A stretch of DNA of 64,000 bases, taken from assembly GCF_026151205.1 (NCBI RefSeq), contig NC_087084.1:12923453-12987452 (forward strand), read 5' to 3'. Source of the stretch: Bolinopsis microptera (Eukaryota > Ctenophora > Tentaculata > Lobata > Bolinopsidae). The number at the start of each line of letters is the position of its first letter. Position 1 is the stretch's first letter. The notes below the pieces were generated by a model. The model made no database searches. It was not told where the DNA came from and saw nothing but the letters and a program-made list of their open reading frames with translations. This document shows, one piece after another, positions 13,539-42,560 of the stretch. Position numbers and translations under genes: made by a program.

Positions 13539-13737
13539 AGGTGGCTAATGGGAAAGCCATTATGGGCAACATGAGATGGTCAGGTGACCACTTTGGCGTT
13601 AAATCGTGCTATCTTGTGACCTCACGTGTCTCATTACTTGCCGCTCTGGAGGGTAGCAAGGAAATATTCTACAGATCCGAGCAAGGAAAGAGCTAGGTTG
13701 ACATATAAGTAGGCCTGGGACCACTCAATGGGCAGTT

Positions 13738-13859
13738 TTAATACTTTCAACACTACTATATAACAAATAATTTGAGGTAAGATTAAGTTCCAATGTGTAA
13801 CTGGTTCTCTCCGGAGACCAGACCTCACATCTTTTGGTAAGCCTTCCACAAGGAGGGCT
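13738..13859 (+). ncRNA. Spliced-leader RNA gene, copy 1
   Basis: Likely Pol II small RNA that donates a 5' leader exon to mRNAs by trans-splicing. The exon is at most 39 nt (13738-13776), starts TTAATACTTTCAACAC and ends AATAATTTGAG, followed by the donor GTAAG at 13777. The intron-like part has a hairpin at 13801-13821 (CTGGTTCTC/GAGACCAG around TCCG, one bulged T), an Sm-type site ATCTTTTGG at 13829-13837, and a 3' hairpin with stem AGCCTTCC/GGAGGGCT at 13840-13859 and loop ACAA. This order is that of known SL RNAs. The same exon, cut exactly at the donor, heads a LINE copy at 32950. The 5' end is uncertain by a few bases. I see no proven promoter; the ~45 bp upstream are conserved between units, like the rest of the unit. 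Confidence 0.85.
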
Positions 13860-14089
13860 CTTATAAACGATGCAACAATAAAGATAAACAGAGCTCCCGA
13901 TATTGTATCCCGACAGCCGTCTGCCAGCTCCGAATCATGTCGTCCTCTTAGTATGGTTTTGTGATCACAACCAAAAAGTAGCCAGCAATGTTGTTACAAT
14001 CAAAGTGCTAATCGCCAGCCATAAACCTAATATTTGCAGGAACTGAGGAATTAATTATCAAATGTAGTGGCCGTAATTTCATAACTTTC

Positions 14090-14207
14090 GGATACGGCCA
14101 TACTCGGTTGAATACACCCCATCTCGTTCGATCTGGGAAGTTAAGCAACTGCAGGCCGGGTTAGTACTTGGATGGGTGACCGCCTGGGAATTCCCGGTGC
14201 CGTATCC
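14090..14207 (+). rRNA. 5S ribosomal RNA, copy 1
   Basis: The 118-nt gene starts GGATACGGCCATAC and ends GTGCCGTATCC, which pair as helix I. The internal control region is recognisable: GAAGTTAAGCAACTGC (box A), GGGTTAGTACTTGGATGG and GTGACCGCCTGGGAA (box C). A TTTT Pol III terminator follows at 14208-14211. Length and core sequence match animal 5S rRNA. Confidence 0.96.
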
Positions 14208-14616
14208 TTTTGCAAATGATTTGTTAATTTCCTCATTTTTTGAGAGGGTGACCCTTTTTTGGGCAACATGACCCCTAAAATGGCCCCCCCCCCCCCCCCA
14301 TTTCATCTGAATGACCGGCAAAAGTTGAGAAGAGGTCGGAACAGTGTCAAGAGCACTGTGATGTAGTGTGTGCAGCATCGAGCTGCATCTCCAACACGTC
14401 CAATTACATCCCTTTTAAGGTGGCTAATGGGAAAGCCATTATGGGCAACATGAGATGGTCAGGTGACCACTTTGGCGTTAAATCGTGCTATCTTGTGACC
14501 TCACGTGTCTCATTACTTGCCGCTCTGGAGGGTAGCAAGGAAATATTCTACAGATCCGAGCAAGGAAAGAGCTAGGTTGACATATAAGTAGGCCTGGGAC
14601 CACTCAATGGGCAGTT

Positions 14617-21824: not shown

Positions 21825-21953
21825 TGTTATATATGGTAATTTATTATGTATTATTATGTAACTTATTTACTAATGTATATATTCCTTAGTCTCCTATGAC
21901 CATAGTTGGTACAAGAATCAGTGGGTTTCATTTGTCAGATACAGTATATAAAA
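21825..21953 (+). repeat. 5' LTR of the gypsy element
   Basis: 129 bp, starting TGTTATATATGG and ending CAGTATATAAAA. It matches 28331-28459 base for base as far as I can read. The 3' boundary is where the two copies diverge. The ending is not the usual CA. Confidence 0.93.
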
Positions 21954-24900
21954 ATGGCGACGAGCTATAAACGGACTTACAACGGCGGATCAGATTTTGA
22001 TGAGTTTAGTGAACAATTCGAGTTATGGGTGAGCCTCAGAGAAGACTATATCGAGGAGTTACCGGTAAGAGAGAATTTTGCAAATGACGAATCGTTCAAT
22101 ACTCAAACAGGGTTGTATAATGCATGTGAACTGAAGAAACGCAAACAGTTTTTGACAGCGTTGGAGCCATCAGTCTATGCCGATATGAAAAACGTTGTGT
22201 ATCCACGTCAGTTAGTGCAAATTCCCTACACAGAACTGAAACAGTTAGTGAGAGATCATTTCTGTCCAAAGCCAACAGTGCCAACCGAACGTTTTACATT
22301 CAGTCGTATGAAGCAAGGAAACAATGAATCAGTGCAAGCTTATGTTTCAAGATTAAAATCTTGTGCGCAACGGAGTAACTTCACTGGTAATGTGTTCAAC
22401 ACAAGATGTCTTGAACAGTTTATTTCTGGATTGTTTTGCGATGATTTTCGGGACATGTTGTTAGCTGAGGACTGGGAAACGCTCACTTTTATTACTGCTG
22501 TAGAGAAAATTGTTACTAAAGAGCGTTCAAAGAGGGAGACTCAGATTGTTGGTAAGGATGCGGTGACGCCGTCTACGTCCGGTGCAGCTGGTGTGAATCG
22601 CGTTAACAAGTGGAGGAAACCAGCAGGGGACTATTCTGGCAAGCAGCAAGGTAAAGGTAAGAAGCCTGGTAAACCTAAGTCAAATATAATTTGCAACAAG
22701 TGCAAATTGCCGGGACACATATTTAAAGATTGCAAAACGAGATGTTTTAAATGCAAAAGCATGGGACACATTAAGAAGAATTGTGTAAATCATGTGCAAC
22801 AAGTTGATCATGTAGATACTGATTTTGATAACGATAGTAATATTGCAAATTGGGAACCTAATTCAATTCATATAGTTGATTCTATTAACCGAGTTGATTC
22901 TAATCCGAAACCTAGAGTTTCTGTTAAGTTAGATTTAGGTGATGTTCGTAAGTCTGTCAATGTATCTATGGAGTTTGACACAGGTTCCAGTGTTGCTTTG
23001 TGTTCGGAACGTTGGTTTGTACAGTCAAGTTTGTCTTGTGTGTTGTCTCCGCATCATCAGCTTCTTAAAGTAGCTAACGGTCAGTCCGAGGAAGCTAAGG
23101 GAAAGGCTACTGTTAATGTGACATTCAAAGGAAAGAGAATCCCTGGTTTAGACTTAGTGATTGTCAAAGGGAACTTTCCGGCTTTGTTTGGATGGAACTG
23201 GATAACAGCATTCCTGGGTAAGAGTTGGTTGAAAGAGATACTGGAAAGATTCAACGCTGAGGGTAAGAGTAGTTTGTGTCAGTATGTTGTGCGAGAGGTT
23301 GAGTCAGTTGGTCTAGACCGTGAGTCCGTGTTGCAGGATCGTGTGTCTGTTGAGTGTGGCAGTGAGGTGTCACATGGTGAGACCATGGACGAGTCAGTCA
23401 GTTTGGACCGTAAGTCTGTGTTGATGTCGCAGGAACGTGTGTCCGTAAAGTGTGACAGTGTTTTGTCGCATGGTGAGACTGAGCAGCCTGATGTGTTGTG
23501 CAGTGTGAGCGAGAAGTCTGTTGTTCGTGTTAAAGACCCTAGCGAGGATGCTAAGGGAGTCAAAGACTTTGGTAGGAATACCAAGGGAGATCAGAGACTC
23601 GATGTAAGACTCATCGAGGATAAAGAAAGAAGAACAAAGACAAAGAATCAACCTGCAGCTACAGTTCTATTCAGAACTCTGGACCAGTTGAAACAGAGTG
23701 AAGTGTTCACTAGTGGTCTGGGACTTGTAGAAGGATTCAAAGCTCAACTGAGGATCAAAGACGACGCTACACCTATATCGTTGAAAGCTCGGATGTTACC
23801 GTTTGCTATAAAAGACAAGGTGAAAGAAGAACTCCAAAGAATGGTAGAAGACGGAATCTTAAAGAGTGTGGAAAGTTCTGAATGGGCAACGCCCATTGTT
23901 GTGGTTACCACAAAGCAAAAGATAAGGATCTGTGGTGATTACAAGTCAACAGTTAACAAGTGTCTCGCAGTGAAGCAGTATCCTATTCCTTCGTTAGAGG
24001 AATGTCTTCATGCAGTCAGAGGAGGTGTTGTGTTTACCGTGGTGGATATAGCCAAAGCGTACAACAATCTCGAGCTGAGGGAAGCAGATAAGACATTGAC
24101 GACGTTAAACACACCTTTTGGACTCTACCGGTGGAATCGTTTACCTTATGGCGTATCAAGCTCGGGTGCTATTTTTCAGGAAGTAGTGGATGAAGCTCTC
24201 AAGGGAATACCGATGACTGCATGTCGGATTGATGACATCATCGTGTCTGGGAGAACAAAGCAGGAACACCTGGAAAACTTGAACCGTGTGATACAAATCT
24301 TGGAGAAGAAAGGGTTTAAATGCAACCGTGAGAAGAGCCAGTTCGAGAAAGAACAAGTTGTTTACTTGGGTCACGTTATATCGAAGGACGGTATTAGAAC
24401 TGTGCAGAGTAAGGTGAAAGACTTACAAGCATCTAAAGTTCCAACGAACACGGAGGAGCTAGTCAGTTTTCTTGGAGCAGTTAACTATTATCGACGATTT
24501 CTACCAGATCTATCAACAGTAGTTGCACCACTAGATAGATTGAGGAGCAAAGATGTGTCTTGGAAGTGGACAAAGACGGAACAGAAGTCTTTTGACAAGT
24601 TGATTGAGATGCTAGGATCAGATCGAGTTTTGACTTATTATCAGCCGGAGTTGGAGCTAAAACTCGACACAGACGCATCTAGTGTTGGATTGGGCGCAGT
24701 GCTGAGCCATGTACTACCTTCAGGGGAGGAACGTCCAATAGAGTATGCTTCTAGGACTCTATCGTCAGCAGAGCGAAATTATGCTCAAATTGATAGAGAA
24801 GCGTTAGCGATTGTATGGGGGATCAAGAAGTTCAACATATACTTGTATGGACGGAAGTTTAAGCTGATCACCGACCACAGACCGCTCACTTATATCTTTG

Positions 24901-26048
24901 GAAAGAACAGACTTCCGCAGATGGCTTCAAGTAGAGTAAACCGATGGTCATTATTCCTATCAGAATATGATTATACAATTGAGTACCGGTCAACAAAGCA
25001 ACATGCAAACTGTGATTTCTTATCCAGATTACCGTGCAGTAAATCTGTGAAAACTTCAGAAGTTCAAGATGATCTAGCTGAGATATTTGCTGTTACTCTG
25101 GAGGATGCTTACATTGACGCAGAGCTGATTGCGAGGGAAACTAGAAAAGACCTTGTTTTGAGTAAGGTATTTGGTTACATTCATGAGGGATGGCCAAGTA
25201 ACTTGAAAGCAGAGGGGGATATGCAAGCATTCTGGAACAGAAGAGATGAGTTAGCATTGGAACTTAACTGTATTACCTGGGGAACGAGAGTGGTGATACC
25301 TGCACAGTTAAGAGGTCATGTCATGAAGATCTTACACAGCACGCACATTGGAATGTGTGGTATGAAATCGATAGCTAGAAGCTATGTGTATTGGCCGAGA
25401 ATAGACGCGGATATTGAAAACACATGTAAAACATGTGATAGTTGTGGAAAGTATGGTAACTCAAAACCTAGAGTCGCTGATCATCCCTGGAATCAACCAA
25501 CCGGACCATGGCAGCGGGTTCATGTGGATTATGCAGGACCGTTCATGAACAGCATGTGGTTAGTATTGCAAGATGCTTACAGCAAATGGCCGGAAGTTAT
25601 CAGGATGAACAGTTCAACAGCTCATGCTACCGTGAAAGCGTTACATACGATATTTTCTAGAACAGGATATCCTTGTGTACTGGTTTCTGACAATGGAACA
25701 CATTTCAAGAACCAGGAAATGAGCGAGTTTACCGAGAAACACAGGATCAAACATCTGTTTATTCCAATCTACAGCCCTAAGACAAACGGGATTGTTGAAA
25801 GGTTTAACGGAACATTCAAGAAAGCGCTGAAAAAGATGCGGGAAACTAATAGGGATTTGGACGAATGTTTAGCAGAGTTTCTAATCTCCTACAGGAACTG
25901 CCCTCATACGGTGACAAATACCCCACCCGCAGTTCTAATGTACGGTAGAACATTACGTTCTAACCTGCACGCATTAAGGCCAGAGGGGGGGGTAAACGCT
26001 CAAAAATTTTTACAAAAATATCATTCTTTAAATAAATTCATTTTTTGA
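21954..26048 (+). CDS. Ty3/gypsy gag-pol polyprotein (C-terminus lost to an insertion)
   Basis: A single long frame starts at ATG 21954, the base after the LTR and overlapping the primer-binding site. An upstream in-frame TTG at 21906 lies inside the LTR and is an unlikely start. Domains in order (residues from 21954): gag-like region 1-240; two CCHC knuckles from about 247 (CNKCKLPGHIFKDC, CFKCKSMGHIKKNC); aspartic protease with FDTGSS near 341; reverse transcriptase about 620-790, with RIDD at the catalytic site rather than the usual YxDD; RNase H with LDTDAS; integrase with an HHCC finger and core motifs VHVDYAGPF, VSDNGTHF and GIVERFNG. From 25978 the frame runs into the nested DNA element and stops at 26048, so the last ~24 residues are not from the element. 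Gag and pol share one frame with no shift. Confidence 0.93.
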   Translation: MATSYKRTYNGGSDFDEFSEQFELWVSLREDYIEELPVRENFANDESFNTQTGLYNACELKKRKQFLTALEPSVYADMKNVVYPRQLVQIPYTELKQLVRDHFCPKPTVPTERFTFSRMKQGNNESVQAYVSRLKSCAQRSNFTGNVFNTRCLEQFISGLFCDDFRDMLLAEDWETLTFITAVEKIVTKERSKRETQIVGKDAVTPSTSGAAGVNRVNKWRKPAGDYSGKQQGKGKKPGKPKSNIICNKCKLPGHIFKDCKTRCFKCKSMGHIKKNCVNHVQQVDHVDTDFDNDSNIANWEPNSIHIVDSINRVDSNPKPRVSVKLDLGDVRKSVNVSMEFDTGSSVALCSERWFVQSSLSCVLSPHHQLLKVANGQSEEAKGKATVNVTFKGKRIPGLDLVIVKGNFPALFGWNWITAFLGKSWLKEILERFNAEGKSSLCQYVVREVESVGLDRESVLQDRVSVECGSEVSHGETMDESVSLDRKSVLMSQERVSVKCDSVLSHGETEQPDVLCSVSEKSVVRVKDPSEDAKGVKDFGRNTKGDQRLDVRLIEDKERRTKTKNQPAATVLFRTLDQLKQSEVFTSGLGLVEGFKAQLRIKDDATPISLKARMLPFAIKDKVKEELQRMVEDGILKSVESSEWATPIVVVTTKQKIRICGDYKSTVNKCLAVKQYPIPSLEECLHAVRGGVVFTVVDIAKAYNNLELREADKTLTTLNTPFGLYRWNRLPYGVSSSGAIFQEVVDEALKGIPMTACRIDDIIVSGRTKQEHLENLNRVIQILEKKGFKCNREKSQFEKEQVVYLGHVISKDGIRTVQSKVKDLQASKVPTNTEELVSFLGAVNYYRRFLPDLSTVVAPLDRLRSKDVSWKWTKTEQKSFDKLIEMLGSDRVLTYYQPELELKLDTDASSVGLGAVLSHVLPSGEERPIEYASRTLSSAERNYAQIDREALAIVWGIKKFNIYLYGRKFKLITDHRPLTYIFGKNRLPQMASSRVNRWSLFLSEYDYTIEYRSTKQHANCDFLSRLPCSKSVKTSEVQDDLAEIFAVTLEDAYIDAELIARETRKDLVLSKVFGYIHEGWPSNLKAEGDMQAFWNRRDELALELNCITWGTRVVIPAQLRGHVMKILHSTHIGMCGMKSIARSYVYWPRIDADIENTCKTCDSCGKYGNSKPRVADHPWNQPTGPWQRVHVDYAGPFMNSMWLVLQDAYSKWPEVIRMNSSTAHATVKALHTIFSRTGYPCVLVSDNGTHFKNQEMSEFTEKHRIKHLFIPIYSPKTNGIVERFNGTFKKALKKMRETNRDLDECLAEFLISYRNCPHTVTNTPPAVLMYGRTLRSNLHALRPEGGVNAQKFLQKYHSLNKFIF

Positions 26049-29784: not shown

Positions 29785-30334
29785 GAGATACTGTGTTATA
29801 TTGTGTGGGGTTAATGACCTGAAACAAACAGATGTAAAAAGCCAAAACGATATTGATATAATCTACAACCATCTAGTTTCAAAAATTGCCCAGATTCAAT
29901 CTATTAATCCGGGTGTGCATGTATATGTTTGTCCAACAATTCCTTCTAAACGTGCTGATTTAAATAGAAAGCTTATATACTTTAACAGTTTGATTCGATG
30001 TAGGCTGCTCCCGTCCAATTTTGGTGTCAGTTATGTGGATGGATTTGATGAGTTCTGTGATAGGGATGGTCTCCTTGACCGCTCTCTCTCTCGCGACCTC
30101 AACAAATACCAAAAACCGGACTTCCTTCACCTCAACTGGAGGGGACTAGCAAAGTTAGGTCAATTTATTCGTAACACTGTTCTTCTCAGGATTAACGGTG
30201 GTATCGACAAAAGGAAGAGGAGGTCCACAAGGGTAGACGATAGATCCTACAGGGATGCGACTGCTGGAAGAGAAACTGGTCCTGTTGTTCCTGCTGCTGC
30301 TAGTCAGGGTCACGTGGATGGTTACCAACCATGA
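29785..30334 (+). pseudogene. LINE copy 1 ORF1, C-terminal fragment (SGNH esterase)
   Basis: In-frame remnant of ORF1 starting in the middle of the SGNH hydrolase domain. It keeps the GVND block and the DFLHLNW block with the catalytic Asp and His, but has lost the GDS nucleophile block. It ends ...GYQP with its TGA overlapping the ORF2 start as ATGA, an arrangement suited to stop-restart translation. Confidence 0.85.
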
Positions 30335-32949
30335 CTCCCCTCATTAAGGAGGTATGTCCTGTCTGTTCTAAGAACATAGTCATCGGCCAAACAATAGTTG
30401 AATGTTTTCACTGTGACTGCATAATGCACCATAAATGCTATCGCAAATCAAATCCAAATAGCCAATCTAATGAGTTTTACTGTACTCGTTGTATCCATTT
30501 AGACAAGGTTAAATACAACCCATTTAAACTACTCACTGACAATGACGACGACGACAACAACCTAGACGAATACACAACCAAAATCTCAAATACTTTAAAT
30601 GATTGTAACTCATACACTGCATCTGACCTTACAAATATTCTCTGCAACCAAGTAAAGAAACAATCATCTATTCTCTTTCAAAATATTGATGGAAATAAAT
30701 CAAATTTTGACAACCTTGCCATTGAAACCTGTAGGTACAAAACAAAATTCTCCGTAATAGCCCTAGCTGAAACCAACACTGGAAAAGAATTAAGCAATCT
30801 ATTTCAGCTCGACGGTTATAATAGTTACTATCAGGACACAGCACCTAACAAACAAAAGGGCACTGGAGTAGCCCTTTATGTTGACGATAAATTAAATGCT
30901 ACTGTAATTGAGAATATATCACAAGTCACAGAACATCTAGAAATACTTGTCTTATCATTAAGTAACGAAGATCAACCTGTTAATGTAGGTGTTTTGTATC
31001 GTCCACCAAGTGGCTGTATTTCCCAAGCTCTAGTTGAACTTTCTAACCTTCTTGATCACATGCCGAAGTTTAGCTATCTAGCTGGAGACTTTAATATCGA
31101 TCTTCATGATAAAGATAACAAAAATGTTCAAAAATATGAAGAAATATTATTCAGTAAAGGATTTTGTCCGTTAATATCGATTGTTACCCACGAAAAACCA
31201 GGCTGTAAAGCATCCTGCATAGACAACATTATTACTAACGATATTGAGAATGTGATTACTTCAGGCACCCTAAAAGAACGAATAACTCATCACTCACCTA
31301 TTTTTAACACATTTAACTGGAATGTTGAAGTCAACTCTGAAAAAACTTCTTTTAAACAATATTACGACTTCTGTCAATCAAATGTTAACGGCTTCCTAGT
31401 GGATCTTGAAGATGAGCTTAAAACTAAAACAATCCATAACTTTACTGAATTCCATGACACTTACAAAAACTGCGTCGAAAAATCGTTTAAACTAGAGACC
31501 CCGAAAACGTATAAGAGAACTGTTCAGGTTAACCCTTGGATAACTCCCGGTCTCATTTGCTCAATTAATAATCAGCATAAACTGTACGAAAATTGGGTTG
31601 AGATAAGAAATAGAAAATGTAAACTCGGGGAAACTGATAACAAGGGCGGCATTTGCCAGTGCCCTGAATGCTCACTAAAACGTAGTCGCTACCTTATCTA
31701 CAAAGAATACAGAAAAGTCCTAAAGAAAACACGTCAAACTGTGAAAACAGAATACTTCTCTGGTAAATTTGCTGAAAATAGCGGTGATAGTAAAAAGACC
31801 TGGGAACTAATAAATCGTATAAGAGGTAAACGGCGGCGTGAAATAAAGCCGCTGTTCACCATAGACAACGTTAAGATAACAAATAGAAGTATCATAGCAA
31901 ACGAATTCAATAAATATTTTGTATCATTAGCCTCTGACCTAAATACCGCTTACAATGATCTTGGACAAATTAACATAAACAGTATACCTAGTTTCTATGA
32001 TTATCTACCGCTTTCAAACACTTCCAGCATTTACATGCATGACTGCACAACAGACGAGGTTAGCAAAATCATATCTGAACTTAAAAATGGCAAGGCAAGT
32101 GACATACCGATTCATGTAATTAAGCAGTCCTCTAAAATAGTTACTCCTTTACTCACTGTACTGTATAACGAATGTATGAAAGATGGCATATTTCCAGATG
32201 ACCTTAAAGTTGGAAGGATTAGTCCCATTTACAAGAAAGATAACCAGGAACTCCTTGAAAACTATAGACCTGTATCAACGCTAGCTGTGTTTGGTAAAAT
32301 ATTTGAAAAGATTATATTCAATAGATTATACAGCTTCTTTCATTCACAGAACTCCTTATATGAAAACCAGTACGGATTCCGTAAAAATCACTCGACCAGT
32401 TATGCCCTAAATTACTCAGTGAACCACGTAGAATCTTGCCTCAAGAAAAAACAACACGTTCTTGGAATATTTATTGATCTTAGTAAAGCCTTTGATACAA
32501 TATCACATGAAAAGTTACTGCATAAGTTAGAAAATTATGGAATCCGTGGAAATGCAAATAACCTTATAGCAAGTTACCTGTCGAACAGATACCAGTATGT
32601 CTCAGTATTAGGTGAAGAATCCGAGAAACTTCCAGTAGTCTATGGAGTGCCGCAGGGGAGCTGTCTTGGTCCCTTACTTTTTATTATTTATATTAATGAC
32701 ATCCGTAACTCATCAATTATAGGAAAGTTTATACTATTTGCCGACGACACTAACATATTTATAGAAGACACATGTGTCAAAAGACTATACGAAAAAGGAA
32801 ATGAAGTTCTATCATTTGTGTACAAGTATATGAAACTAAACTTATTACATATTAACATTAAGAAATGTTGTTTTATTCATTTAAACCCTCACGGGCCAAA
32901 GAGGAAGTAGAAAATGACGAGAACATACTAACTTTAAATAATGTAGTTA
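30331..32949 (+). pseudogene. LINE copy 1 ORF2, N-terminal and RT part (frameshifted, interrupted)
   Basis: Starts at ATG 30331. Residues 1-60 form a PHD-like Cys/His finger (CPVC...FHCDCIMHHKC...CTRC). An AP-type endonuclease follows (FQNIDG, LAETNT, AGDFNIDL, SCIDNIIT), then reverse transcriptase (ENYRPVSTL, FIDLSKAFDT, YGVPQGSCLGP, FADDTN). Compared with copy 2, one base is missing near 32883, which shifts the frame and gives an early stop at 32910. Copy 2 then interrupts the gene at 32949. Confidence 0.9.
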
Positions 32950-32988
32950 TTAATACTTTCAACACTACTATATAACAAATAATTTGAG
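32950..32988 (+). other. Spliced-leader exon relic at the 5' end of the LINE
   Basis: 39 bases are identical to the exon of the SL RNA genes at 13738-13776 and the other copies. The match ends exactly at the ...TTTGAG before the GTAAG donor; here TGTTCAGGAATGG follows instead. The first four bases may belong to the target duplication, so 35-39 bases derive from the leader. The exact splice-site junction indicates trans-splicing of the LINE RNA before reverse transcription. Confidence 0.92.
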
Positions 32989-33184
32989 TGTTCAGGAATG
33001 GTATGTTACAACTCCCCCGAAGGGGCGTACTAAGCTAAGGGTCATCTACACTCTATTAGGGTCATCTACACTTTACTAGGGTCATCAACTCTGAAGTCCT
33101 AATCCCCTCCAAAACAAAACACTTAACGGGAGCCGACCCCAAGTCGGATCTATTTGGTCAGTATTACTTATATTTGATTTGAGA
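32989..33184 (+). other. 5' UTR of LINE copy 2, with ~20-bp direct repeats
   Basis: About 196 bp between leader and ORF1. TAGGGTCATCTACACT-type units recur near 33047, 33057 and 33078, the last one diverged. A dyad CCCCCGAAGGGG lies at about 33015. It has no ATG-initiated frame of note. Confidence 0.6.
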
Positions 33185-35347
33185 ATGGCGACAAATAGGA
33201 AGAATTCAGGTACTCCTAAAACATCTAATAGCTTGTCTCGCAACATTTTAGCTGAATCTACAGTGGACAATGAAGATCAGGAAAACAGGAAACATAGGGA
33301 CAAGAAGAAATGTCCATGTCAACGCTCTTTTAACGGTAAAGTTTACCTCATTGACTGTTCTAAGTGTCATCAAGAGTGGCATGTGGACTGCCTGTCTATG
33401 AAGGGTATAACGAGGTCAGCTATCAACTCCATGGTAGAATGGCTGTGCCCATACTGCTTCGTGGCACCAGTATCAACACTGAAGAAACAGAGAGGTGAAT
33501 TTTGTTACAGCTGCAGGAACACAAGGGCTTTGCAACAGGCCAACTCAGATTTTGAAGCATCTACAGCTGTTAAGAATCTCGAAACTGTCAGTGCACTCGT
33601 GGCATCAGCAAGCTCAGCAGGCTCAGCTCTTGAAAAATTTGACTTCGAACAGTTCTCTAGGAACCTTGACACTCTCTCCCAGTTCGACGTTCACCTTCAA
33701 CACCTGCTTCTTAAAGAGAACTCCCTTAATGGGCTAAATAATGAAATAAAGCTTCAGGACAAATCATTAGAATCAATCAATACTAATATTGCCGAACTTC
33801 AGAAGGACCTGAAACTTCTGTCATCCAGACCATCTACAGAACCATCCTCACCCTCAGCTTCATCTGAGCAGTTTCTGAAGGACATCTCTGAACAGCTCAC
33901 TGTACTCTGTGCCAATGAGCACACTGCAGCTGCAGGCATAAGTGAATTGAAACAATCCTTAGACTCATTACAGCCATTGCATAATCCTGGCCCCTGCATT
34001 CCTCCCACCCCATTGCATCCAGGACCTCCTACTCAGCACCTTCGTTCTCCAGTCCCTACAGTCCCTGTGCAGCTACCCAATCATGAGCAGAAACCTGTGG
34101 AAATGTTCAAAGATGACTACATTGATCAGCAAACAGCAAATGATTTAGGAGAACTTTTTGTTAAGGACAGCAGTCACTTCAAAGTTGAGAACGACCGCTC
34201 CTGCCTAACATATGGGGAAAGGTATGATTACCCAGGTTCCAAGTCATCTGAAAAGCCACAGGCAATACCATCGGTTCTCAAGGAACTCATTGACAAAATC
34301 AATAATGAGTTCTGCCAGGGTGATCTACCTCAGATCAACAGCTGCTTAGTAAATCGGTTTGAAGGAACAGACAGCAAGCTACCTAGACACTCTGATGACG
34401 AGGCTACCATCCATCCAGAGTCTAAAATATTTACTGTCTCGCTTGGTTCTGCATGTCAGGTTTCTTTCTCTGACTCTCACACAGGCACTGATAAGCACAA
34501 GCAGCAATGTGACCCACGGTCCTTGTATGTTATGACACGTCATAGCCAAGCACTGTTCGACCATCGTATTGATGCAGGTGATATAGAAGGGCTACGTTAC
34601 AGCATCACACTTAGATCCGTGAATTCGTTGAACAGAAATGCCACATGCATCATCGGGGATTCAAACACTGGAGGCTTGAAATTTGGTACTGATCCTGCTA
34701 AGTCATTCGGCAAGTGGTTACCTGGCAAACGCATCTTCGCTCCGGTCATTGATAATATAGATCCTTATGTCACGTTGGGGTATAGAAACTGTGTAATATT
34801 GTGCGGGGTCAACGACCTCAAAAACGAAGACGTCAAGAACCAACATGACATTGAAATTATTTATAACGCATTAGCTTCAAAGATTGCACAGATACAATCT
34901 GTCAATCCGTGTATACATGTTTTTGTTTGTCCAGCAATTCCCTCTAAACGTGCTGACTTAAATAGAAAACTTATATATTTTAACAGTTTGATTCGACGTA
35001 GGCTGCTCCCGTCCAATTTTGGTGTCAGTTATGTGGATGGATTTGATGAGTTCTGTGATAGAGATGGTCTACTTGACCGCTCTCTCTCTCGCGACCTCAA
35101 CAAACACCAAAAACCAGACTTCCTTCACCTCAACTGGAGGGGACTAGCAAAGTTAGGTCAATTTATTCGTAACACTGTTCTTCTCAGGATTAACGGTGGT
35201 ATCGACAAAAGGAAGAGGAGGTCCACAAAGGTAGACAGTAGATCCTTCAGGGATGTGACTGCTGGAAGAGAAACTGGTCCTGTTGTTCCTGCTGCTGCTA
35301 GTCAGGGTCACGTGGATGGCTACCAACCACATGACTCCCCTCATTAA
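33185..35347 (+). CDS. LINE ORF1: PHD finger, AlkB-like dioxygenase, SGNH esterase
   Basis: 720 residues from ATG 33185 (GAGAATGG); an in-frame TTG at 33179 is less likely. About 43-93: PHD-like Cys/His finger (CPCQ...CSKCHQEWHVDC...CPYC). About 115-240: helical region rich in Leu, Ser and Gln, probably coiled coil. About 255-300: Pro-rich linker. About 310-480: AlkB-like 2-oxoglutarate/Fe(II) dioxygenase, with H402-x-D404, H460 and R471-x5-R477 (RYSITLR). About 485-690: SGNH hydrolase with GDS (S493), GVND (N543) and DFLH (D645, H648). PHD and esterase domains are established for CR1-type ORF1; the AlkB assignment is my reading of motif order and spacing. It could act on RNA or DNA of the element, but this is not shown. 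The stop at 35347 overlaps the start of ORF2 by 17 bases. Confidence 0.88.
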   Translation: MATNRKNSGTPKTSNSLSRNILAESTVDNEDQENRKHRDKKKCPCQRSFNGKVYLIDCSKCHQEWHVDCLSMKGITRSAINSMVEWLCPYCFVAPVSTLKKQRGEFCYSCRNTRALQQANSDFEASTAVKNLETVSALVASASSAGSALEKFDFEQFSRNLDTLSQFDVHLQHLLLKENSLNGLNNEIKLQDKSLESINTNIAELQKDLKLLSSRPSTEPSSPSASSEQFLKDISEQLTVLCANEHTAAAGISELKQSLDSLQPLHNPGPCIPPTPLHPGPPTQHLRSPVPTVPVQLPNHEQKPVEMFKDDYIDQQTANDLGELFVKDSSHFKVENDRSCLTYGERYDYPGSKSSEKPQAIPSVLKELIDKINNEFCQGDLPQINSCLVNRFEGTDSKLPRHSDDEATIHPESKIFTVSLGSACQVSFSDSHTGTDKHKQQCDPRSLYVMTRHSQALFDHRIDAGDIEGLRYSITLRSVNSLNRNATCIIGDSNTGGLKFGTDPAKSFGKWLPGKRIFAPVIDNIDPYVTLGYRNCVILCGVNDLKNEDVKNQHDIEIIYNALASKIAQIQSVNPCIHVFVCPAIPSKRADLNRKLIYFNSLIRRRLLPSNFGVSYVDGFDEFCDRDGLLDRSLSRDLNKHQKPDFLHLNWRGLAKLGQFIRNTVLLRINGGIDKRKRRSTKVDSRSFRDVTAGRETGPVVPAAASQGHVDGYQPHDSPH

Positions 35348-38300
35348 GGAGGTATGTCTTGTCTGTTCTAAGAACATAGTCATCGGCCAAACAATAGTTG
35401 AATGTTTCCACTGTGACTGCATAATGCACCATAAATGCTATCGCAAATCCAATACAAATAGCCAATCTAATGAGTTTTACTGTACTCGTTGTATCCATTT
35501 AGACAAGGTTAAATACAACCCATTTAAACTACTCACTGACAATGACAACGACGACAACAACCTAGACGAATACACAACCAAAATCTCGAATACTTTAAAT
35601 AATTGTAACTCATACACTGCATCTGACCTTACCAATATTCTCTGCAACCAAGTAAAGAAACAATCATCTATTCTCTTTCAAAATATTGATGGAAATAAAT
35701 CAAATTTTGACAACCTTGCCATTGAAACCTGTAGGTACAAAACAAAATTCTCCGTAATAGGCCTAGCTGAAACCAACACTGGGAAAGAATTAAGCAACCT
35801 ATTTCAGCTCGACGGTTATAATAGTTACTATCAGGACACAGCACCTAACAAACAAAAGGGCACTGGAGTAGCCCTTTATGTTGACGATAGATTAAATGCT
35901 ACAGTAATTGAAAATATATCACAAGTCACAGAAAATCTAGAAATACTTGTCTTATCATTAAGTAACGAAGATCAACCTGTTAATGTAGGTGTTTTGTATC
36001 GTCCACCAAGTGGCTGTATTTCCCAAGCTCTAGTTGAACTTTCTAACCTTCTTGATCACATGCCGAAGTTTAGTTATCTAGCTGGAGACTTTAATATCGA
36101 TCTTCATGATAAAGATAACAAAAATGTACAAAAATATGAAGAAATATTGTTCAGTAAAGGATTTTGTCCGTTAATATCTATTGCTACTCACGAAAAACCA
36201 GGCTGTAAAGCATCTTGCATAGACAACATAATTACCAACGACATTGAGAATGTTATTACTTCAGGCACCCTAAAAGAACGAATAACTCACCACTCGCCTA
36301 TTTTTAACATATTTAACTGGAATGTTGAAGTCAACTCTGGAAAAACTTCTATTAAACAGTATTACGATTTCTGTCAATCAAATGTTAACGGCTTCCTAGT
36401 GGATCTTGAAGATGAGCTTAAAACTAAAATAATCCATAACTTTACTGAATTCCATGACACTTACAAAAACTGCATCGAAAAATCGTTTAAACTAGAAACC
36501 CCGAAAACCTCTAAGAGAACTGTTAAGGTTAACCCTTGGATAACTCCCGGTCTCATTTGCTCAATTAATAATCAGCATAAACTGTACGAAAATTGGGTTG
36601 AGATAAGAAATAGAAAATGTAAACTCGGGGAAACTGATAACAAGGGCGGGATTTGCCAGTGCCCTGAATGCTCACTAAAACGTAGTCGCTACCTTATCTA
36701 CAAAGAATACAGAAAAGTCCTAAAGAAAACACGTCAAACAGTGAAAACAGATTACTTCTCTGGTAAATTTGCAGAAAATAGCGGGAATAGTAAAAAGACC
36801 TGGGAACTAATTAATAGTATAAGAGGAAAACGGCGGCGTGAAATAAAGTCGCTGTTCACCATAGACAACGTTAAGATAACGAACAGGAGGATCATAGCAA
36901 ACGAATTCAATAAGTATTTCGTATCATTGGCCTCTGACCTAAATACTGCTTACAATGAACTTGGTCAAATGAACATAAACAATCTACCTAGTTTCTATGA
37001 CTATTTACCGCTCTCAAACACCTCCAGCATTTACATGCATGACTGCACAACAGACGAGGTTAGCAAAATCATATCTGAACTTAAGAACGGTAAGGCAAGT
37101 GATATTCCTATTCATGTTGTAAAACAGTCCTCAAAAATAGTCACTCCTCTACTTACTGTACTGTACAATGAATGTATGAAAGATGGCATATTCCCTGATG
37201 ACCTTAAGATTGGAAGGATTAGTCCAATTTACAAGAAAGATAACCAGGAACTCCTTGAAAATTATAGACCTGTGTCGACACTTGCAGTATTTGGTAAAAT
37301 ATTTGAAAAAATTATATTCAACAGATTATATAGCTTCTTTCATGCACAGAATTCCTTGTATGAAAACCAGTACGGATTCCGTAAAAATCATTCGACTAGT
37401 TATGCTTTAAATTACTCAGTTAACCACATAGAATCACGTCTCAAGAAAAAACAACACGTACTTGGAATATTTATTGATCTTAGCAAAGCTTTTGATACAA
37501 TCTCACATGAAAAGTTACTGCATAAGTTAGAAAATTATGGGATCCGTGGAAATGCAAACAACCTTATAGCAAGTTACCTGTCGAATAGATACCAGTATGT
37601 CTCAGTATTAGGTGAAGACTCTGAGAAACTGCCCGTTGTCTACGGAGTGCCCCAAGGGTCCTGTTTAGGTCCCCTGCTGTTTATCATCTACATAAATGAC
37701 ATCCGAAACTCATCAATTATAGGAACGTTTATACTATTTGCCGATGACACTAACATATTTATTGAAGAAACATGTGTCAGAAGACTGTACGAAAAGGGAA
37801 ATGAAGTTTTAGCATCTGTTTATAAGTATATGAAACTAAACTTATTACATATTAACATTAAGAAATGCTGTTTTATACACTTTAGACCGTCACGTGCCAA
37901 AGAGGAAGTAGAAAATGACGAGAACATATTAACTTTGAACAATGTTGTCATTAAAAAAGTCCAAGAAGCTAAATTTCTAGGTGTCATTATCGATGATCAA
38001 CTTAATTGGAAAACTCACACACGGTCACTTAACTCAAAACTTAAATGTGAAGTAGGTAAGTTATGCAGAATACGACACATTGTCCCTAAACAGTATTATA
38101 AGGATTTATACCATACTTTATTCGAATCACATTTGGGATTTGGAATATCTGTATGGGGTGGTATTAGCAACAACCGACTCGAACCTCTCTTTAAAACACA
38201 GAAAAAGTGTATAAGAATTCTATTTGGGGATAAAGAAGCTTACTTAGAAAAATTTAGAACTTGTGCCCGGACACGACCATTTGGTGAGCAAAGACTAGGT

Positions 38301-38684
38301 GTGGACTTTTACAAAAAAGAACACTCTAAACCCTTGTTTAAGAATCAGAAATTGTTAACTGTTCACAACCTGTATAAGTACACTTGTCTCTTAGAACTAT
38401 TCAAAATTAATAAGTTAGAGGAACCATTATCACTGTACTCATCATTTAACAGGTCACCACGACGAGAGGATTATTTCATCACATCACAACCATCCTCACA
38501 ATTCATCTACCAATCATCCTACATGTGGAACAGCTGTCGACAAACATCAAGTAAGATAAGTTTTAATACTCCGACAAACGGGTTTAAGAATACATTGAAA
38601 ATTGCTTTACAAGAATTGCAATTCAAGCATGATACACTTGATTGGTGTGAGCTTAATTTTGCCACGAATAAGCTCAAGTTTTGA
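35331..38684 (+). CDS. LINE ORF2: PHD-like finger, AP endonuclease, reverse transcriptase
   Basis: 1117 residues from ATG 35331; the open frame extends upstream but homology to copy 1 supports this start. Residues 1-60: Cys/His finger (CLVCSKN...FHCDCIMHHKC...CTRC). About 100-330: AP-type endonuclease (FQNIDG, LAETNT, VLYRPPSG, AGDFNIDL, SCIDNIIT, HHSPI). About 560-830: reverse transcriptase (ENYRPVSTL, FIDLSKAFDT, YGVPQGSCLGP, FADDTN catalytic). A C-terminal region contains FLGVIIDDQLNW and DLYHTLFESHLGFG. It nicks target DNA and copies element RNA in the nucleus by target-primed reverse transcription. Domain order fits the CR1/L2/Jockey group. No disabling change is seen. Confidence 0.93.
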   Translation: MTPLIKEVCLVCSKNIVIGQTIVECFHCDCIMHHKCYRKSNTNSQSNEFYCTRCIHLDKVKYNPFKLLTDNDNDDNNLDEYTTKISNTLNNCNSYTASDLTNILCNQVKKQSSILFQNIDGNKSNFDNLAIETCRYKTKFSVIGLAETNTGKELSNLFQLDGYNSYYQDTAPNKQKGTGVALYVDDRLNATVIENISQVTENLEILVLSLSNEDQPVNVGVLYRPPSGCISQALVELSNLLDHMPKFSYLAGDFNIDLHDKDNKNVQKYEEILFSKGFCPLISIATHEKPGCKASCIDNIITNDIENVITSGTLKERITHHSPIFNIFNWNVEVNSGKTSIKQYYDFCQSNVNGFLVDLEDELKTKIIHNFTEFHDTYKNCIEKSFKLETPKTSKRTVKVNPWITPGLICSINNQHKLYENWVEIRNRKCKLGETDNKGGICQCPECSLKRSRYLIYKEYRKVLKKTRQTVKTDYFSGKFAENSGNSKKTWELINSIRGKRRREIKSLFTIDNVKITNRRIIANEFNKYFVSLASDLNTAYNELGQMNINNLPSFYDYLPLSNTSSIYMHDCTTDEVSKIISELKNGKASDIPIHVVKQSSKIVTPLLTVLYNECMKDGIFPDDLKIGRISPIYKKDNQELLENYRPVSTLAVFGKIFEKIIFNRLYSFFHAQNSLYENQYGFRKNHSTSYALNYSVNHIESRLKKKQHVLGIFIDLSKAFDTISHEKLLHKLENYGIRGNANNLIASYLSNRYQYVSVLGEDSEKLPVVYGVPQGSCLGPLLFIIYINDIRNSSIIGTFILFADDTNIFIEETCVRRLYEKGNEVLASVYKYMKLNLLHINIKKCCFIHFRPSRAKEEVENDENILTLNNVVIKKVQEAKFLGVIIDDQLNWKTHTRSLNSKLKCEVGKLCRIRHIVPKQYYKDLYHTLFESHLGFGISVWGGISNNRLEPLFKTQKKCIRILFGDKEAYLEKFRTCARTRPFGEQRLGVDFYKKEHSKPLFKNQKLLTVHNLYKYTCLLELFKINKLEEPLSLYSSFNRSPRREDYFITSQPSSQFIYQSSYMWNSCRQTSSKISFNTPTNGFKNTLKIALQELQFKHDTLDWCELNFATNKLKF

Positions 38685-40271
38685 TTAATGTGAGTTACTA
38701 AAATAACCACTTATCTTTCCTCATACATGCAACCACTGCACTCCAACTAAACACATTATTTACCACAGTCCACACACCATACTCCACAGATGATATATTT
38801 ATATATACACACAAACACACTAGTACCGAACAATTGCACTGTAAAACATGCTCACGATACACTCAAAATTAGAAATATTCGGCTCGTATATGAAACTTAG
38901 CGACTTACACTCAGTGTACACCCAGTGTTAACCAGTATTACACACTAGTAAATTCTACGTAACGCGCGAAAACAATAATTCTGTAGCGTTTTCATTGTCA
39001 CATTTCACGTCGACGGGATTAAACGCGCGCGCGCGTAACAACTTATCTTACTGCTAACTCAGCGACTAAACACACAACGACTTTGACATTTGACAGATGA
39101 CTAAACAATTGTGAGTTATGACGGACTTAACTGTATGGGTCAACTACTGAAACTATATTGTTTACTATCTTATTCATTATACTGGACATGAGATGACGAA
39201 GTATCTTAAGCAGCACTTTATACCCCCACTTAGAACTTGATTAGTCACGAACAATAGAATCATCAAAAACCAATACAATAAAACATCTTGATCAATAAAT
39301 GCCTAGCAGCACCAGACAGCAGCCGTGTACCTTTTTCGACTCCGTGGAGTCCCTGATGGACTTTTGTTTACTTTTGTTAATAATCGGACTAACCTTTCTT
39401 TCTCGAAACATGTATCCTATTGTAATTCATTATAGTATTAAGATGTGAAGATATATAATACTAGATATTACAACGAAATAGAGGTATACCAAATTGGCCC
39501 TTGATATGAACTATAACCGTGTTGATGGTTTTAAATTTTGTATGTTGTAAGCACTTTAGTTTGTGAAGCGTTTACTCCTCCCCCTCAGCAAGACAGCTAG
39601 ATTATAGATTAATGATAATAATTGTCAAATGTCGTTATATATTATATAACAGTTATAAATGTTCAATAGTTGTAGAGCGACTTCAAGAGTAGTGGTCCAC
39701 AGGGGTCCGAAAAAGCCGTACAGGCACTTGGGTCCTTATCCTTGTCACTAATCTCAATTCTATTCGGTTTACACAAAGCATGAACATTTAGACGTACACA
39801 TTGACACGATATTTATTAGAAAGCAAAAAGTATAAAATAATACGTGCGTGCGCGGCTTGAGCCGCGCCGCATAAGAACGGATGCGTGCAGGGGCTGGAGT
39901 ACGCTTGTATGTAAATTAATGAAATGTTGCATTGTAAATATTTAGAATTGACGATATATTTTGATCTAAAAGTAAATTTTACAAAGCTGGCTTTGGATTT
40001 AGGTAAGATTATAATTTATTTTAAAAAAAACCACGGATAATTTTAAATGTATTTCTATTTGTCGTATAATCATAAACAATTTAATCATGTTTTTAAGAAT
40101 GCGCGGCTTTGGCGGCCAGTTATTGACTTATACATTAAATTAAATTTTAAATAGAAATGTGAATATATTAAAATTTAAAACTTTCAAAACGGAGGCTTAT
40201 AAATATTATTATATTATGATTGTAAAATAAAGGATAAAATTTTAAATTTGTTTCACTAAAATTTGTTTCAC
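38685..40271 (+). other. 3' UTR of LINE copy 2
   Basis: 1.6 kb non-coding, clearly alignable to 41006-42560 of copy 1. Conserved blocks include a hairpin GACTCC(GT)GGAGTC near 39340 whose loop differs in copy 1 (AC) while the stem is kept, GGCTTGAGCCGCGCCGC near 39855 and an ACGCGCGCGCGCG run near 39024. It ends with tail repeats TTAAATTTGTTTCACT and AAAATTTGTTTCAC. Confidence 0.85.
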
Positions 40272-41005
40272 TTAAAAGAGTTCAAGAAGCTAAATTTCTA
40301 GGCGTTATTATTGACGACCAACTTAACTGGAAATCACATACGCAGTCACTTAACTCAAAACTTAAATGCGAAGTAGGAAAGCTGTGCAGAATACGACACA
40401 TTGTCCCAAAGCAGTATTATAAGGATTTATATCATACTCTATTTGAATCACATTTAGGATTTGGAATATCTGTGTGGGGTGGTATTAGCAATAACCGACT
40501 TGAACCTATCTTTAAAACACAGAAAAAGTGTATAAGAATTCTGTTTGGGGATAGAGAAGCTTACCTAGAGAAGTTTAAAACGTGTGCCCGAACACGACCT
40601 GTTGATAAGCAAAGACTGGGGGTGGACTTTTACCAAAAAGAACACTCCAAGCCCTTGTTTAAAACCCACAGGTTGTTGACGGTCCACAATCTGTACAAGT
40701 ACACTTGTCTCTTAGAACTATTCAAAATTAATAAGTTAGAGGAACCATTATCACTGTACTCATCATTTAACAGGTCACCACGACGAGAGGATTATTTCAT
40801 TACATCACAACCATCCTCACAATTCATCTACCAATCATCCTACATGTGGAACAGCTGTCGACAAACATCAAGTAAGATAAGTCTTAATACTCCGACAAAC
40901 GGGTTTAAGAATATATTGAAAATTGCCTTACGAGAATTGCAATTCAAGCATGATACACTTGATTGGTGTGAGCTTAATTTTGCCACAAATGAGCTCAAGT
41001 TCTGA
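40272..41005 (+). pseudogene. LINE copy 1 ORF2, C-terminal part after the nested copy
   Basis: Homologous codon for codon to the end of copy 2 ORF2, beginning with the AKFLGVIIDDQLNW segment and ending at TGA 41005. An open frame exists from about 40272; the first ATG (40472) is internal and not a real start. It was once contiguous with 30331-32949. Confidence 0.9.
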
Positions 41006-42560
41006 TTTATGTGAGTTACTAAAATGACCATATATCTTTTCTCATACATACAACCACTGCACTCCAACCAAAAACATTACTTACACCATACTCCACAAAT
41101 GATATATATATATATATACACAAACACACTAGTACCGAGCAATCGCACTGTAAAACATGCTCACGATACACTCAAAATTGGAAATATTCAACGGCTTGTA
41201 TATACACTTACACTCAGTGTACACCCAGTGTTAACTAGTATTACACACTGGTAAACTCTACGTAACGCGCGAAAATAATAATTCTATGGCGTTTTCATTG
41301 TCACATCTCACGTCGACGGGATTAAACGCGCGCGCGCGTAACATCTTATCTTACTGCTATCTCAACGAATAAACACACAACGACTTTGACAATTGACCGA
41401 CGACTTAACGATTGTGAGTTATGACGGACTTAACTGTATGGGTCAACTACTAAAACTGCATTGTATACTATCTTAATCATTATACTGGACATGAGATGAC
41501 GAAGTATCTTGAGCAGCACTTTATACCTCCACTTAGAACTTGATTAGTCACGAACAATAGAATCATTATAAATCAATACAATAAAACATCTTGATCAATA
41601 AATGCCTAGCAGCACCAGACAGCAGCCGTGTACCTTTTTCGACTCCACGGAGTCCCTGATGGACTTTTGTTTACTTTTGTTAATAATTTGACCGCAACCT
41701 TTCTTTCTCGAAACACAAATCCTACTGTACTTCATTACAGTATTAAGATAATATAAAGCAAATCATGTGAATATATGACTACGAAATAGATCTATAGATT
41801 TGTCCATAATATTTAATACCGTATTGATGGTTTTGAATTTTGTATATTGAATTTTAATGTGAAGCGTTTACTCTTCCCCCTCGGCAATTAATTAGAAAGT
41901 TAGATTAATGACAATAATTGCCAAATGACGTAGTAGATATAAATGTTCAATGTTGTAGAGTGATTTCAAGAGTATTGGTCCACAGGGGTCCGAAAAAGCC
42001 GTACAGGCACTTGGGTCCTTATCCTTGTCACTAGTCCCAATTGGATTCACTTTACACAAAACATGAACGTTTACAATTTAGACGTACACATTGGCACGAT
42101 ATTTATTAGAAAGCAAACAGTATAACATAATACGTGCGTGCGCGGCTTGAGCCGCGCCGCATAACAATTTATGCGTTTAGGGGCTGGAGTACGCGTGTTT
42201 ACAGATTAATGAATTGTTGCATTGTAAATATTTAAAGTTGACGATATATTATGATTTAATAGTAAATTTTTCAAAGCTGGCTTTGGACTTAGGTAAAATT
42301 ATAACTTATTTATTTAAAAGACCACGGATAGTTTTAAATTTACATAGTCGTATAACTATAATCAAGTTAATCCTGTTTTCAAGAATGCGCGGCTTTGGCG
42401 GCCAATTATTGACTTGTACATATAATTGAATTTTAAATAGAAATGTGAATGTATTAAAATTTAAAACTTTCAAAACGGAGGCTTATAAATATTATTATAT
42501 TATGATTGTAAAATAAAGGATAAAATTTTAAATTTGTTTCACTAAAAAATTTGTTTCACT
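41006..42560 (+). other. 3' UTR of LINE copy 1
   Basis: Homologous to the copy 2 3' UTR block by block, with small indels. It ends AAATTTGTTTCACT, AAA, AAATTTGTTTCACT at 42560. Small open frames here do not persist between copies. Confidence 0.85.

What the first reader, a model, noticed from the sequence alone, without database searches (positions are those of the whole stretch)
32950..32988. A full-length LINE starts with the spliced leader, joined exactly at the SL splice donor
Seen: 39 bases identical to the exon part of the neighbouring SL RNA genes stand at the 5' end of LINE copy 2, and the match stops at TTTGAG, exactly before the GTAAG donor. Inference: the parent LINE RNA was trans-spliced and then reverse transcribed to its very 5' end. 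Known parallel: relic leaders in dinoflagellate genomes from recycled mRNAs. Template switching onto SL RNA would be expected to include intron sequence, which is absent. It also suggests that a retroelement may use the host leader as its mRNA 5' end.
Basis: partly seen in the sequence, partly recalled or inferred. Interest (0 to 1): 0.95.

Follow-up and report, generated by a model that had tools for sequence, protein, structure and literature searches.

The report
Retrotransposons wearing the host's spliced leader
In what looks like a comb jelly genome, jumping genes begin with the short RNA tag that the cell splices onto its own messages, and close relatives carry different tags, so the tag appears to be replaced as the elements copy themselves.

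Summary
In detail: bases 32950-32988 of LINE copy 2 equal the SL RNA exon and stop exactly at its splice donor. Copy 2 sits inside LINE copy 1, so the leader is part of the retrotransposed unit.

It is not an isolated relic. In three repeat groups, 59 of 63 copies found begin with a leader (one partial), the other four are 5'-truncated, and none shows an outron instead. Closely related copies carry different leaders: SL1 (41), SL2 (17), SL3 (1); SL2 and SL3 have their own gene arrays. In the window's family, leaders also join at three inner sites, exactly the three YAGs in its first 132 nt. So leaders were added repeatedly, most likely by trans-splicing, and then reverse transcribed.

Best reading: the relic leader, which ends in AG, is itself the acceptor for the next trans-splicing, so the leader is swapped each cycle. 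An unseen leaderless master is not excluded, and transcript data are missing. Related facts are known (Hydra TE transcripts, dinoflagellate retrogenes); this self-renewal I did not see in my paper searches.

The parts
32950..32988 (+). SL1 spliced leader (39 of about 43 nt) at the 5' end of LINE copy 2, joined exactly at the SL RNA splice donor; ends in GAG, the proposed acceptor for the next trans-splicing
32989..33184 (+). LINE 5' UTR; its first 132 nt hold exactly three YAG triplets, ending 7, 71 and 91 nt in, which are the three alternative leader junctions of relatives
33185..35347 (+). ORF1 (720 aa): PHD finger (below Pfam cut-off), AlkB-like 2OG-Fe(II) oxygenase, GDSL esterase (below cut-off)
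35283..38684 (+). ORF2 frame, uninterrupted: reverse transcriptase; endonuclease match below Pfam cut-off
38685..40263 (+). LINE 3' part ending in a repeat of AAATTTGTTTCACTA
29786..32953 (+). LINE copy 1 (same family, 5'-truncated), left part, into which copy 2 is inserted
40264..41749 (+). LINE copy 1, right part (extent of the alignment), resuming after copy 2
13734..13890 (+). one SL1 RNA gene (exon 13734-13776, donor GTAAG, then stem-loops around AUCUUUUGG; its 3' end is estimated); further exons begin at 14613, 15492, 18854, 19738, 20618, 21502 and, as a variant, 29005, in one region with 5S rRNA genes

Best explanation
LINE transcripts in this genome receive the host's spliced leader by SL trans-splicing; the element's reverse transcriptase copies the RNA up to the start of the leader, so each full-length new copy starts with a leader. 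Because these SL exons end in AG (TTTGAG, TATTGAG), the relic leader in the new copy is itself a 3' splice site: when that copy is transcribed from somewhere upstream, the spliceosome removes everything up to and including the old leader and joins a fresh SL1, SL2 or SL3. The leader is thus a self-renewing 5' end. Occasional use of the next YAG downstream costs some 5' nucleotides. Shown from DNA: leader identity, exact junctions, copying to about the leader's 5' end, repeated leader changes among relatives, YAG at the alternative junctions of two groups, no copy with an outron among those found. Inferred: that splicing is the joining step, that the relic's own AG is the acceptor, and that transcription starts upstream of the relic.
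For: Exact junction. SL2 and SL3 are real SL RNA exons: one unit of each array reads ...TATTGAG|GTAAGATTAAG. Window family F1: 20 of 23 copies with a leader (17 SL1 of which one partial, 2 SL2, 1 SL3), 3 truncated. F2: 13 of 14 (7 SL1, 6 SL2), 1 truncated. F4, a set of related subfamilies: 26 of 26 (17 SL1, 9 SL2). The best trees need at least 3 leader changes in F1 (23 copies) and 5 in F4 (17 of 26 copies); L045 (SL2, site A) is sister to L046 (SL1, site B) at 100/99. Alternative junctions: in F1 at 7, 71 and 91 nt, precisely the three YAGs in 132 nt; in F4 behind TTCAG (4 copies). L193 (SL1) and L197 (SL2) are both joined at the shifted F4 site and group together in the tree (83/79); over 2 kb, 8 sites (9 less the junction base) pair them against L186 and L189, and 0 favour either other pairing. 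If they inherited the shifted junction, the only AG directly before the body was the relic's. Exact SL1-SL1 tandems with 0-8 nt between: 0. Literature: Hydra TE Iso-Seq reads carry SL in about 30% (PMC12220107, passage); the Hormiphora leader, homologous by eye, is on 56% of Iso-Seq reads (PMC8527503, section read).
Against: No RNA data for this genome. GAG is the weakest AG class at animal 3' splice sites (recalled), and a CAG lies only 5-7 nt downstream in F1 and F4, yet site A is the commonest. An unassembled or polymorphic leaderless master would give nearly the same data. L193 and L197 could be two separate uses of the CAG from one A-type parent (B is 4 of 26 in F4); the pair's own private changes in 840 nt are two adjacent bases. 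In F1 no two B copies share private changes. Identity of SL1 across diverged subfamilies is not evidence, as the adjoining 5' UTR is equally identical. F4 copies agree mostly over 64 nt only and its tree drew a long-branch warning. Neighbouring leaders do exist in places: 9 nt apart in a rearranged unit (L022), 100-140 nt apart (L147), and L200 has TTTGAG directly before a full leader. SL2 and SL3 as old leaders in tandems were not tested. The 4 truncated copies and the incompleteness of loose first-look searches mean that counts are lower bounds.
Confidence: 0.7

Rival explanations
1. Master model: each family is fed by one or a few leaderless master loci with an outron and an ordinary acceptor; leader-bearing copies are trans-spliced products that do not themselves transpose.
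For: Explains different leaders, alternative YAG junctions and lack of stacked leaders equally well.
Against: No such master among the 63 copies found in three groups, in an assembly whose largest contigs are of chromosome size. The pair L193/L197 shares the shifted junction with different leaders.
Confidence: 0.22
2. The leader is a fixed part of the LINE, captured once (for example as a promoter) and copied with the element. A softer form, proposed for retroposed DinoSL in dinoflagellates (PMC6050394, passage), is that the relic acts as a promoter while a fresh leader is still trans-spliced; that form is compatible with my reading.
For: All 59 non-truncated copies found in three groups have a leader.
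Against: Against the fixed form: closely related copies carry different leaders, and leaders are joined at four sites in one family.
Confidence: 0.03
3. Template switching or RNA ligation: the reverse transcriptase jumps from LINE RNA to a free SL exon or to another mRNA's leader.
For: Both are proposed for LINE-1 chimeras (PMC13174262, passages); a free SL exon would end exactly at the junction.
Against: The element side of the alternative junctions falls behind a YAG in all 11 such copies of F1 and F4, which splicing predicts and jumping does not.
Confidence: 0.04
4. Target-site preference: the LINE inserts into SL genes, as CRE/SLACS and NeSL elements do.
For: Copies lie directly behind SL exons.
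Against: Sequence upstream of the leader differs between the 20 F1 copies by eye, identity to the SL gene ends near the exon's 5' end, and copy 2 lies inside another LINE.
Confidence: 0.01

Closest known systems
Trans-spliced transposable-element transcripts of Hydra (PMC12220107)
   Same: Host SL found on TE transcripts: 30.9% and 29.7% of TE Iso-Seq reads in two strains (passage).
   Different: A statement about RNA; in the passages I saw nothing on leaders at genomic 5' ends, leader change between copies or the relic as acceptor.
Dinoflagellate retrogenes with relict DinoSL (Slamovits and Keeling 2008, as told in PMC6050394)
   Same: SL copied into the genome from trans-spliced mRNA.
   Different: Host genes there, LINEs here. 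Multiple DinoSLs were found in about 20-25% of the transcripts analysed, though the same paper says few retrogenes hold several; here no exact SL1-SL1 stack.
LINE-1 chimeras formed by trans-splicing with mRNA first exons (PMC13174262)
   Same: Exon joined at splice sites to a LINE, often near full length, then retrotransposed.
   Different: 17 mRNAs in that study, each a sporadic event; here a dedicated SL on all 59 non-truncated copies of three groups.
CRE/SLACS and NeSL elements (PMC3636483)
   Same: Non-LTR elements tied to spliced leaders.
   Different: Those insert into SL exons; these carry the leader to scattered sites.
Trypanosoma cruzi L1Tc / Pr77 (PMC4748587)
   Same: Non-LTR element in a host that trans-splices its mRNAs.
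   Different: Reporter transcripts from Pr77 start at +1 and lack the SL; these LINEs appear to use it.

Membership tests
SL trans-splicing product | leader identical to the exon of an SL RNA gene and ending at its GT donor | tested here: met
   three SL species
SL trans-splicing product | joined behind an AG of the acceptor pre-mRNA | tested here: met
   all 11 copies with alternative sites in F1 and F4 are joined behind a YAG of the longer form; for site A only the relic's own GAG is visible
SL trans-splicing product | leader present on the RNA | not testable with these tools
   no transcript data held for this genome; for Hormiphora see PMC8527503
non-LTR retrotransposon (LINE) with APE endonuclease | endonuclease plus reverse transcriptase in ORF2 | tested here: met
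   RVT_1 5.1e-37; Exo_endo_phos 3.7e-4, below Pfam cut-off in copy 2; another LINE of the window has it above cut-off. For F2 and F4 the reverse transcriptase was not looked at
CR1-type LINE (feature list recalled) | ORF1 with PHD finger and esterase | tested here: inconclusive
   both found below Pfam cut-off, with an AlkB-like domain between them; no reverse-transcriptase phylogeny made
relict-SL retrocopies of the dinoflagellate kind | SL relic directly upstream of a retrocopied body | tested here: met
relict-SL retrocopies of the dinoflagellate kind | stacked multiple leaders | tested here: inconclusive
   0 exact SL1-SL1 tandems with 0-8 nt between; of 69 places from a looser search 7 were fetched, none a clear tandem, L200 ambiguous; SL2/SL3 as old leader not tested; neighbouring leaders in L022 and L147
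CRE/NeSL site-specific elements | insertion inside SL exons | tested here: not met

The most novel reading that the evidence does not exclude
The spliced leader works as a portable, self-renewing 5' end for a whole class of animal LINEs: because these SL exons end in AG, each retrotransposed leader is the 3' splice site that recruits its own replacement. The elements then need no promoter that starts at +1, since any upstream transcription gives RNA with a uniform, freshly capped 5' end. The many scattered leaders of ctenophore genomes would be mostly retrotransposon 5' ends, not SL genes.
Probability: 0.55. Interest if true: 0.92.

Novelty: new variant of a known kind. Interest (0 to 1): 0.84.

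Why it matters
How a LINE keeps a complete 5' end, with the means to be transcribed and translated again, is a standing problem of LINE biology. Here the host's trans-splicing would solve it, with the acceptor carried inside the leader. It would also explain why SL-like sequences are so numerous in ctenophores (718 in Hormiphora and 491 in Mnemiopsis, PMC8527503): in this genome at most 80 of 1705 SL1 hits continue into an SL gene intron, so counts of 'leader loci' and gene models built on them may need another look. And it gives a tag in the DNA that marks full-length retrocopies and records which leader each parent RNA received.

Tried and rejected
Leader divergence against body divergence as a test of renewal: rejected, because by eye the first 56 nt of the 5' UTR are as identical between the two F1 subfamilies as the leader is, though the subfamilies are about 0.16 changes per site apart.

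Leader tandems: the exact SL1-SL1 pattern gave 0. A looser pattern gave 69 hits against 47 for the reversed control; I fetched 7 of the 69. In three no leader was recognised at the mismatches allowed; L199 is a head-to-head arrangement, L202 and L205 are single leaders behind unrelated sequence, and L200 has TTTGAG directly before a full leader and stays ambiguous. That pattern was wrongly written for SL2/SL3 as old leader, which remain untested.

Does the leader always run to the splice site? Of the first 100 exact 24-mers, 82 continue exactly to TTTGAG; of the other 18 I saw two, one with a substitution (L202) and one diverging in a rearranged unit (L022).

Inherited B-type junctions in F1: no two B copies share private changes, so F1 does not tell self-acceptor from master.

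Hammerhead ribozymes behind SL1, suspected by eye: 0 of 13 sources reached any Rfam gathering score.

CRE/NeSL-like targeting and a fixed inherited leader: rejected.

Paper searches for the idea; of these I saw listings (capped at 20 or so where more papers matched) with abstract starts. Passages were seen in PMC8527503 (one section whole), PMC6050394, PMC12220107, PMC12460157, PMC3636483, PMC4748587, PMC2566580, PMC4233971, PMC4558846, PMC13174262, PMC10232365, PMC11797021. Derelle et al. 2010 is not held.

Full report
What is there. Bases 32950-32988 equal the exon of the neighbouring SL RNA genes and end where those genes have GTAAG. The SL genes share a region with 5S rRNA genes, and their RNA folds better than shuffles (z -3.3; 2 of 200 shuffles as good). 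The leader heads LINE copy 2, which has two open frames (ORF1 720 aa; ORF2 with reverse transcriptase, 1,120 aa as scanned). Copy 2 interrupts copy 1 of the same family, whose sequence stops at about 32953 and resumes at about 40264. The leader is therefore inside the retrotransposed unit and not part of the target.

Which genome. It has 264.65 Mb in 232 contigs. Its SL is homologous by eye to the Hormiphora leader GAGTTTCAAACTTTTCAACACTACTTTAAACAAATTAATTTGAG, found on 56% of Iso-Seq reads (PMC8527503, section read). The size fits Bolinopsis microptera, listed at 265 Mb but with 346 scaffolds (PMC11797021, passage). I take it as a ctenophore; the species is a guess.

How general. A 32-nt SL1 pattern (up to 3 mismatches) has 1705 hits and 0 in the reversed control. 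At most 80 hits continue into the SL gene intron (one of the weakest is an F2 copy, not a gene). Of the first 100 exact places listed, nearly all on C1, I examined 97: 1 is an SL gene, and the 97 have 46 different 10-nt continuations. A 24-nt pattern that stops short of the splice site (up to 2 mismatches) has 1730 hits; of its first 100 exact hits 82 continue exactly to TTTGAG. Two more leaders, SL2 and SL3, have 757 and 155 hits, including tandem arrays; one unit of each was read and is an SL RNA gene with the same GTAAGATTAAG donor.

Copied to about the first nucleotide. Identity to the SL gene falls to background around the AG of cAGTTTT. Across 93 distinct SL1 copies the four T's are 80-92% identical, G 51% and A 46% (A is 30-41% further upstream); for SL2 (11 copies) A and G are 73% and 82%, for SL3 (9 copies) 89% and 78%. 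So many copies reach the presumed start of the SL RNA.

Leaders change between relatives. In the window's family (F1) all 23 candidate copies were scored; 20 begin with a leader and 3 are 5'-truncated. Seventeen have SL1 (one only its last dozen bases), two SL2, one SL3. The tree of 23 copies has two well-supported subfamilies, each with more than one leader kind and junction; only 3 of 20 inner branches are fully supported, among them L045 (SL2) with L046 (SL1) at 100/99; the best tree needs 3 leader changes. F2 (ORF with PHD fingers): 13 of 14 with a leader (7 SL1, 6 SL2) at one junction, the bodies mostly 98-100% identical over 228 nt; 1 truncated. F4 is a set of related subfamilies: of 26 copies, 7 match the query over 202-228 nt at 99-100% and 19 over the first 64-65 nt at 83-91%; all 26 have a leader (17 SL1, 9 SL2), and the 7 alone have 4 SL1 and 3 SL2. 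A tree of 17 of the 26 needs at least 5 leader changes but drew a long-branch warning. The F4 ORF resembles ORF1 of F1 (E 2e-7, one comparison). That F2 and F4 are LINEs rests on these ORFs.

Junctions behave as splice acceptors. In F1, 13 leaders join at site A (before TGTTCAGG), 4 at B, 2 at C, 1 at D. In the window copy B, C and D lie 7, 71 and 91 nt inside the element, and its first 132 nt contain exactly three YAGs, ending at 7, 71 and 91; the two C copies belong to the other subfamily, which has a 7-nt insertion before that YAG. If three junctions fell at random among 132 positions the chance would be about 3 in a million. In F4, 4 of 26 are joined behind the internal TTCAG. One further pair outside these groups, L104 and L088, differs by a junction behind AAAG. 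Splicing predicts this; template jumping and inheritance do not.

Where is the acceptor of site A? Among the 63 copies found in three groups, none has a non-leader outron at the junction. Either leaderless masters were missed or are absent from the assembly, or leader-bearing copies are the parents, and then the only AG at site A is the leader's own GAG. One observation favours the second: L193 (SL1) and L197 (SL2) are both joined at the shifted F4 site and have lost TTCAG. They group together (83/79); in 840 nt of 8 copies they share two adjacent private changes; over 2 kb, four copies compared, 9 sites (8 without the junction base) pair them against L186 and L189 and 0 favour another pairing. 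If they inherited the shifted junction, their leader was exchanged at the relic's GAG. Two separate uses of the CAG are not excluded.

Stacking. Exact SL1-SL1 tandems with 0-8 nt between number 0. Exceptions near that limit: two SL1 9 nt apart in a rearranged head-to-head unit (L022), three SL1 100-140 nt apart (L147), and L200, where TTTGAG directly precedes a full leader. In dinoflagellates about 20-25% of analysed transcripts held several leaders, though the same paper says few retrogenes do and suggests that the relic may act as a promoter (PMC6050394, passages). Replacement at the relic's 3' end predicts lack of stacking; so does a leaderless master.

Mechanism. Shown from DNA: leader identity, exact junctions, copying to about the leader's start, repeated changes of leader, YAG at alternative junctions. 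Inferred: splicing as the joining step (no RNA data), relic GAG as acceptor, transcription from upstream. The model would free the element from needing a start site at +1.

Against it. GAG is usually a poor 3' splice site (recalled), and the nearby CAG is used in only 4 of the 17 F1 copies at sites A and B and 4 of 26 in F4. SL1 identity across subfamilies is not evidence, since the neighbouring 5' UTR is equally conserved by eye.

Known and new. TE transcripts with SL are reported in Hydra (PMC12220107, passage), trans-spliced LINE-1 chimeras in mammals (PMC13174262, passages), SL-targeted LINEs (PMC3636483, passages) and a trypanosome LINE promoter whose reporter transcripts lack the SL (PMC4748587, passages). 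In the listings I saw no report of LINEs whose genomic 5' ends are renewable leaders; most subscription papers are not held, and the listings were capped.

Noticed in passing
window 33185-35347: ORF1 of the LINE holds an AlkB-like 2OG-Fe(II) oxygenase domain (PF13532, E 1.1e-14) between PHD and GDSL parts. One may ask whether it removes cap-proximal methyl groups that block reverse transcription; this is speculation.
   Followed up: partly
L036, L123, L124, L127, L146: Head-to-head pairs of SL1 leaders a few tens of bases apart, each followed outward by the same repeat (for example CCTGAAGATGGCGTTGACGCCGAAA or ATGATTCATCGATCC). The inverted arrangement is unexplained; no Rfam family matched.
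   Followed up: partly
L147 (C1:24530322-24530734) and L028: Three SL1 leaders 100-140 nt apart, each followed by TCAGGGRAGCGGCACTGAGAG; L028's upstream flank resembles the sequence between them.
   Followed up: no
L012, minus strand: SL1 stands directly before an ORF for a small secreted-looking protein (MKLFILLALFGMLTFVNC...), perhaps a retrocopy of a host mRNA; no clear poly(A) seen.
   Followed up: partly
L088 and L104: A further repeat shows SL2 and SL1 joined at two junctions, the inner one behind AAAG.
   Followed up: no
window 4-13537 and 14234 onward: A 176-bp satellite array abuts the SL/5S array, and the satellite's unit (TTTTTTGAGAGGGTGACCC...) recurs in the spacer behind the 5S gene at 14090.
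   Followed up: no
window 21906-26048: A Gypsy-like gag-pol frame of 1380 aa (recognised by eye in the translation) lies between SL/5S gene copies.
   Followed up: no
G000 C1:14.49-14.55 Mb; C5:1.040-1.051 Mb; C3:13.51-13.55 Mb; C5:21.34-21.35 Mb: Separate arrays of SL2 (434-bp period), SL3 (about 428 bp) and SL1 (about 591 bp on C3, about 857 bp on C5).
   Followed up: partly
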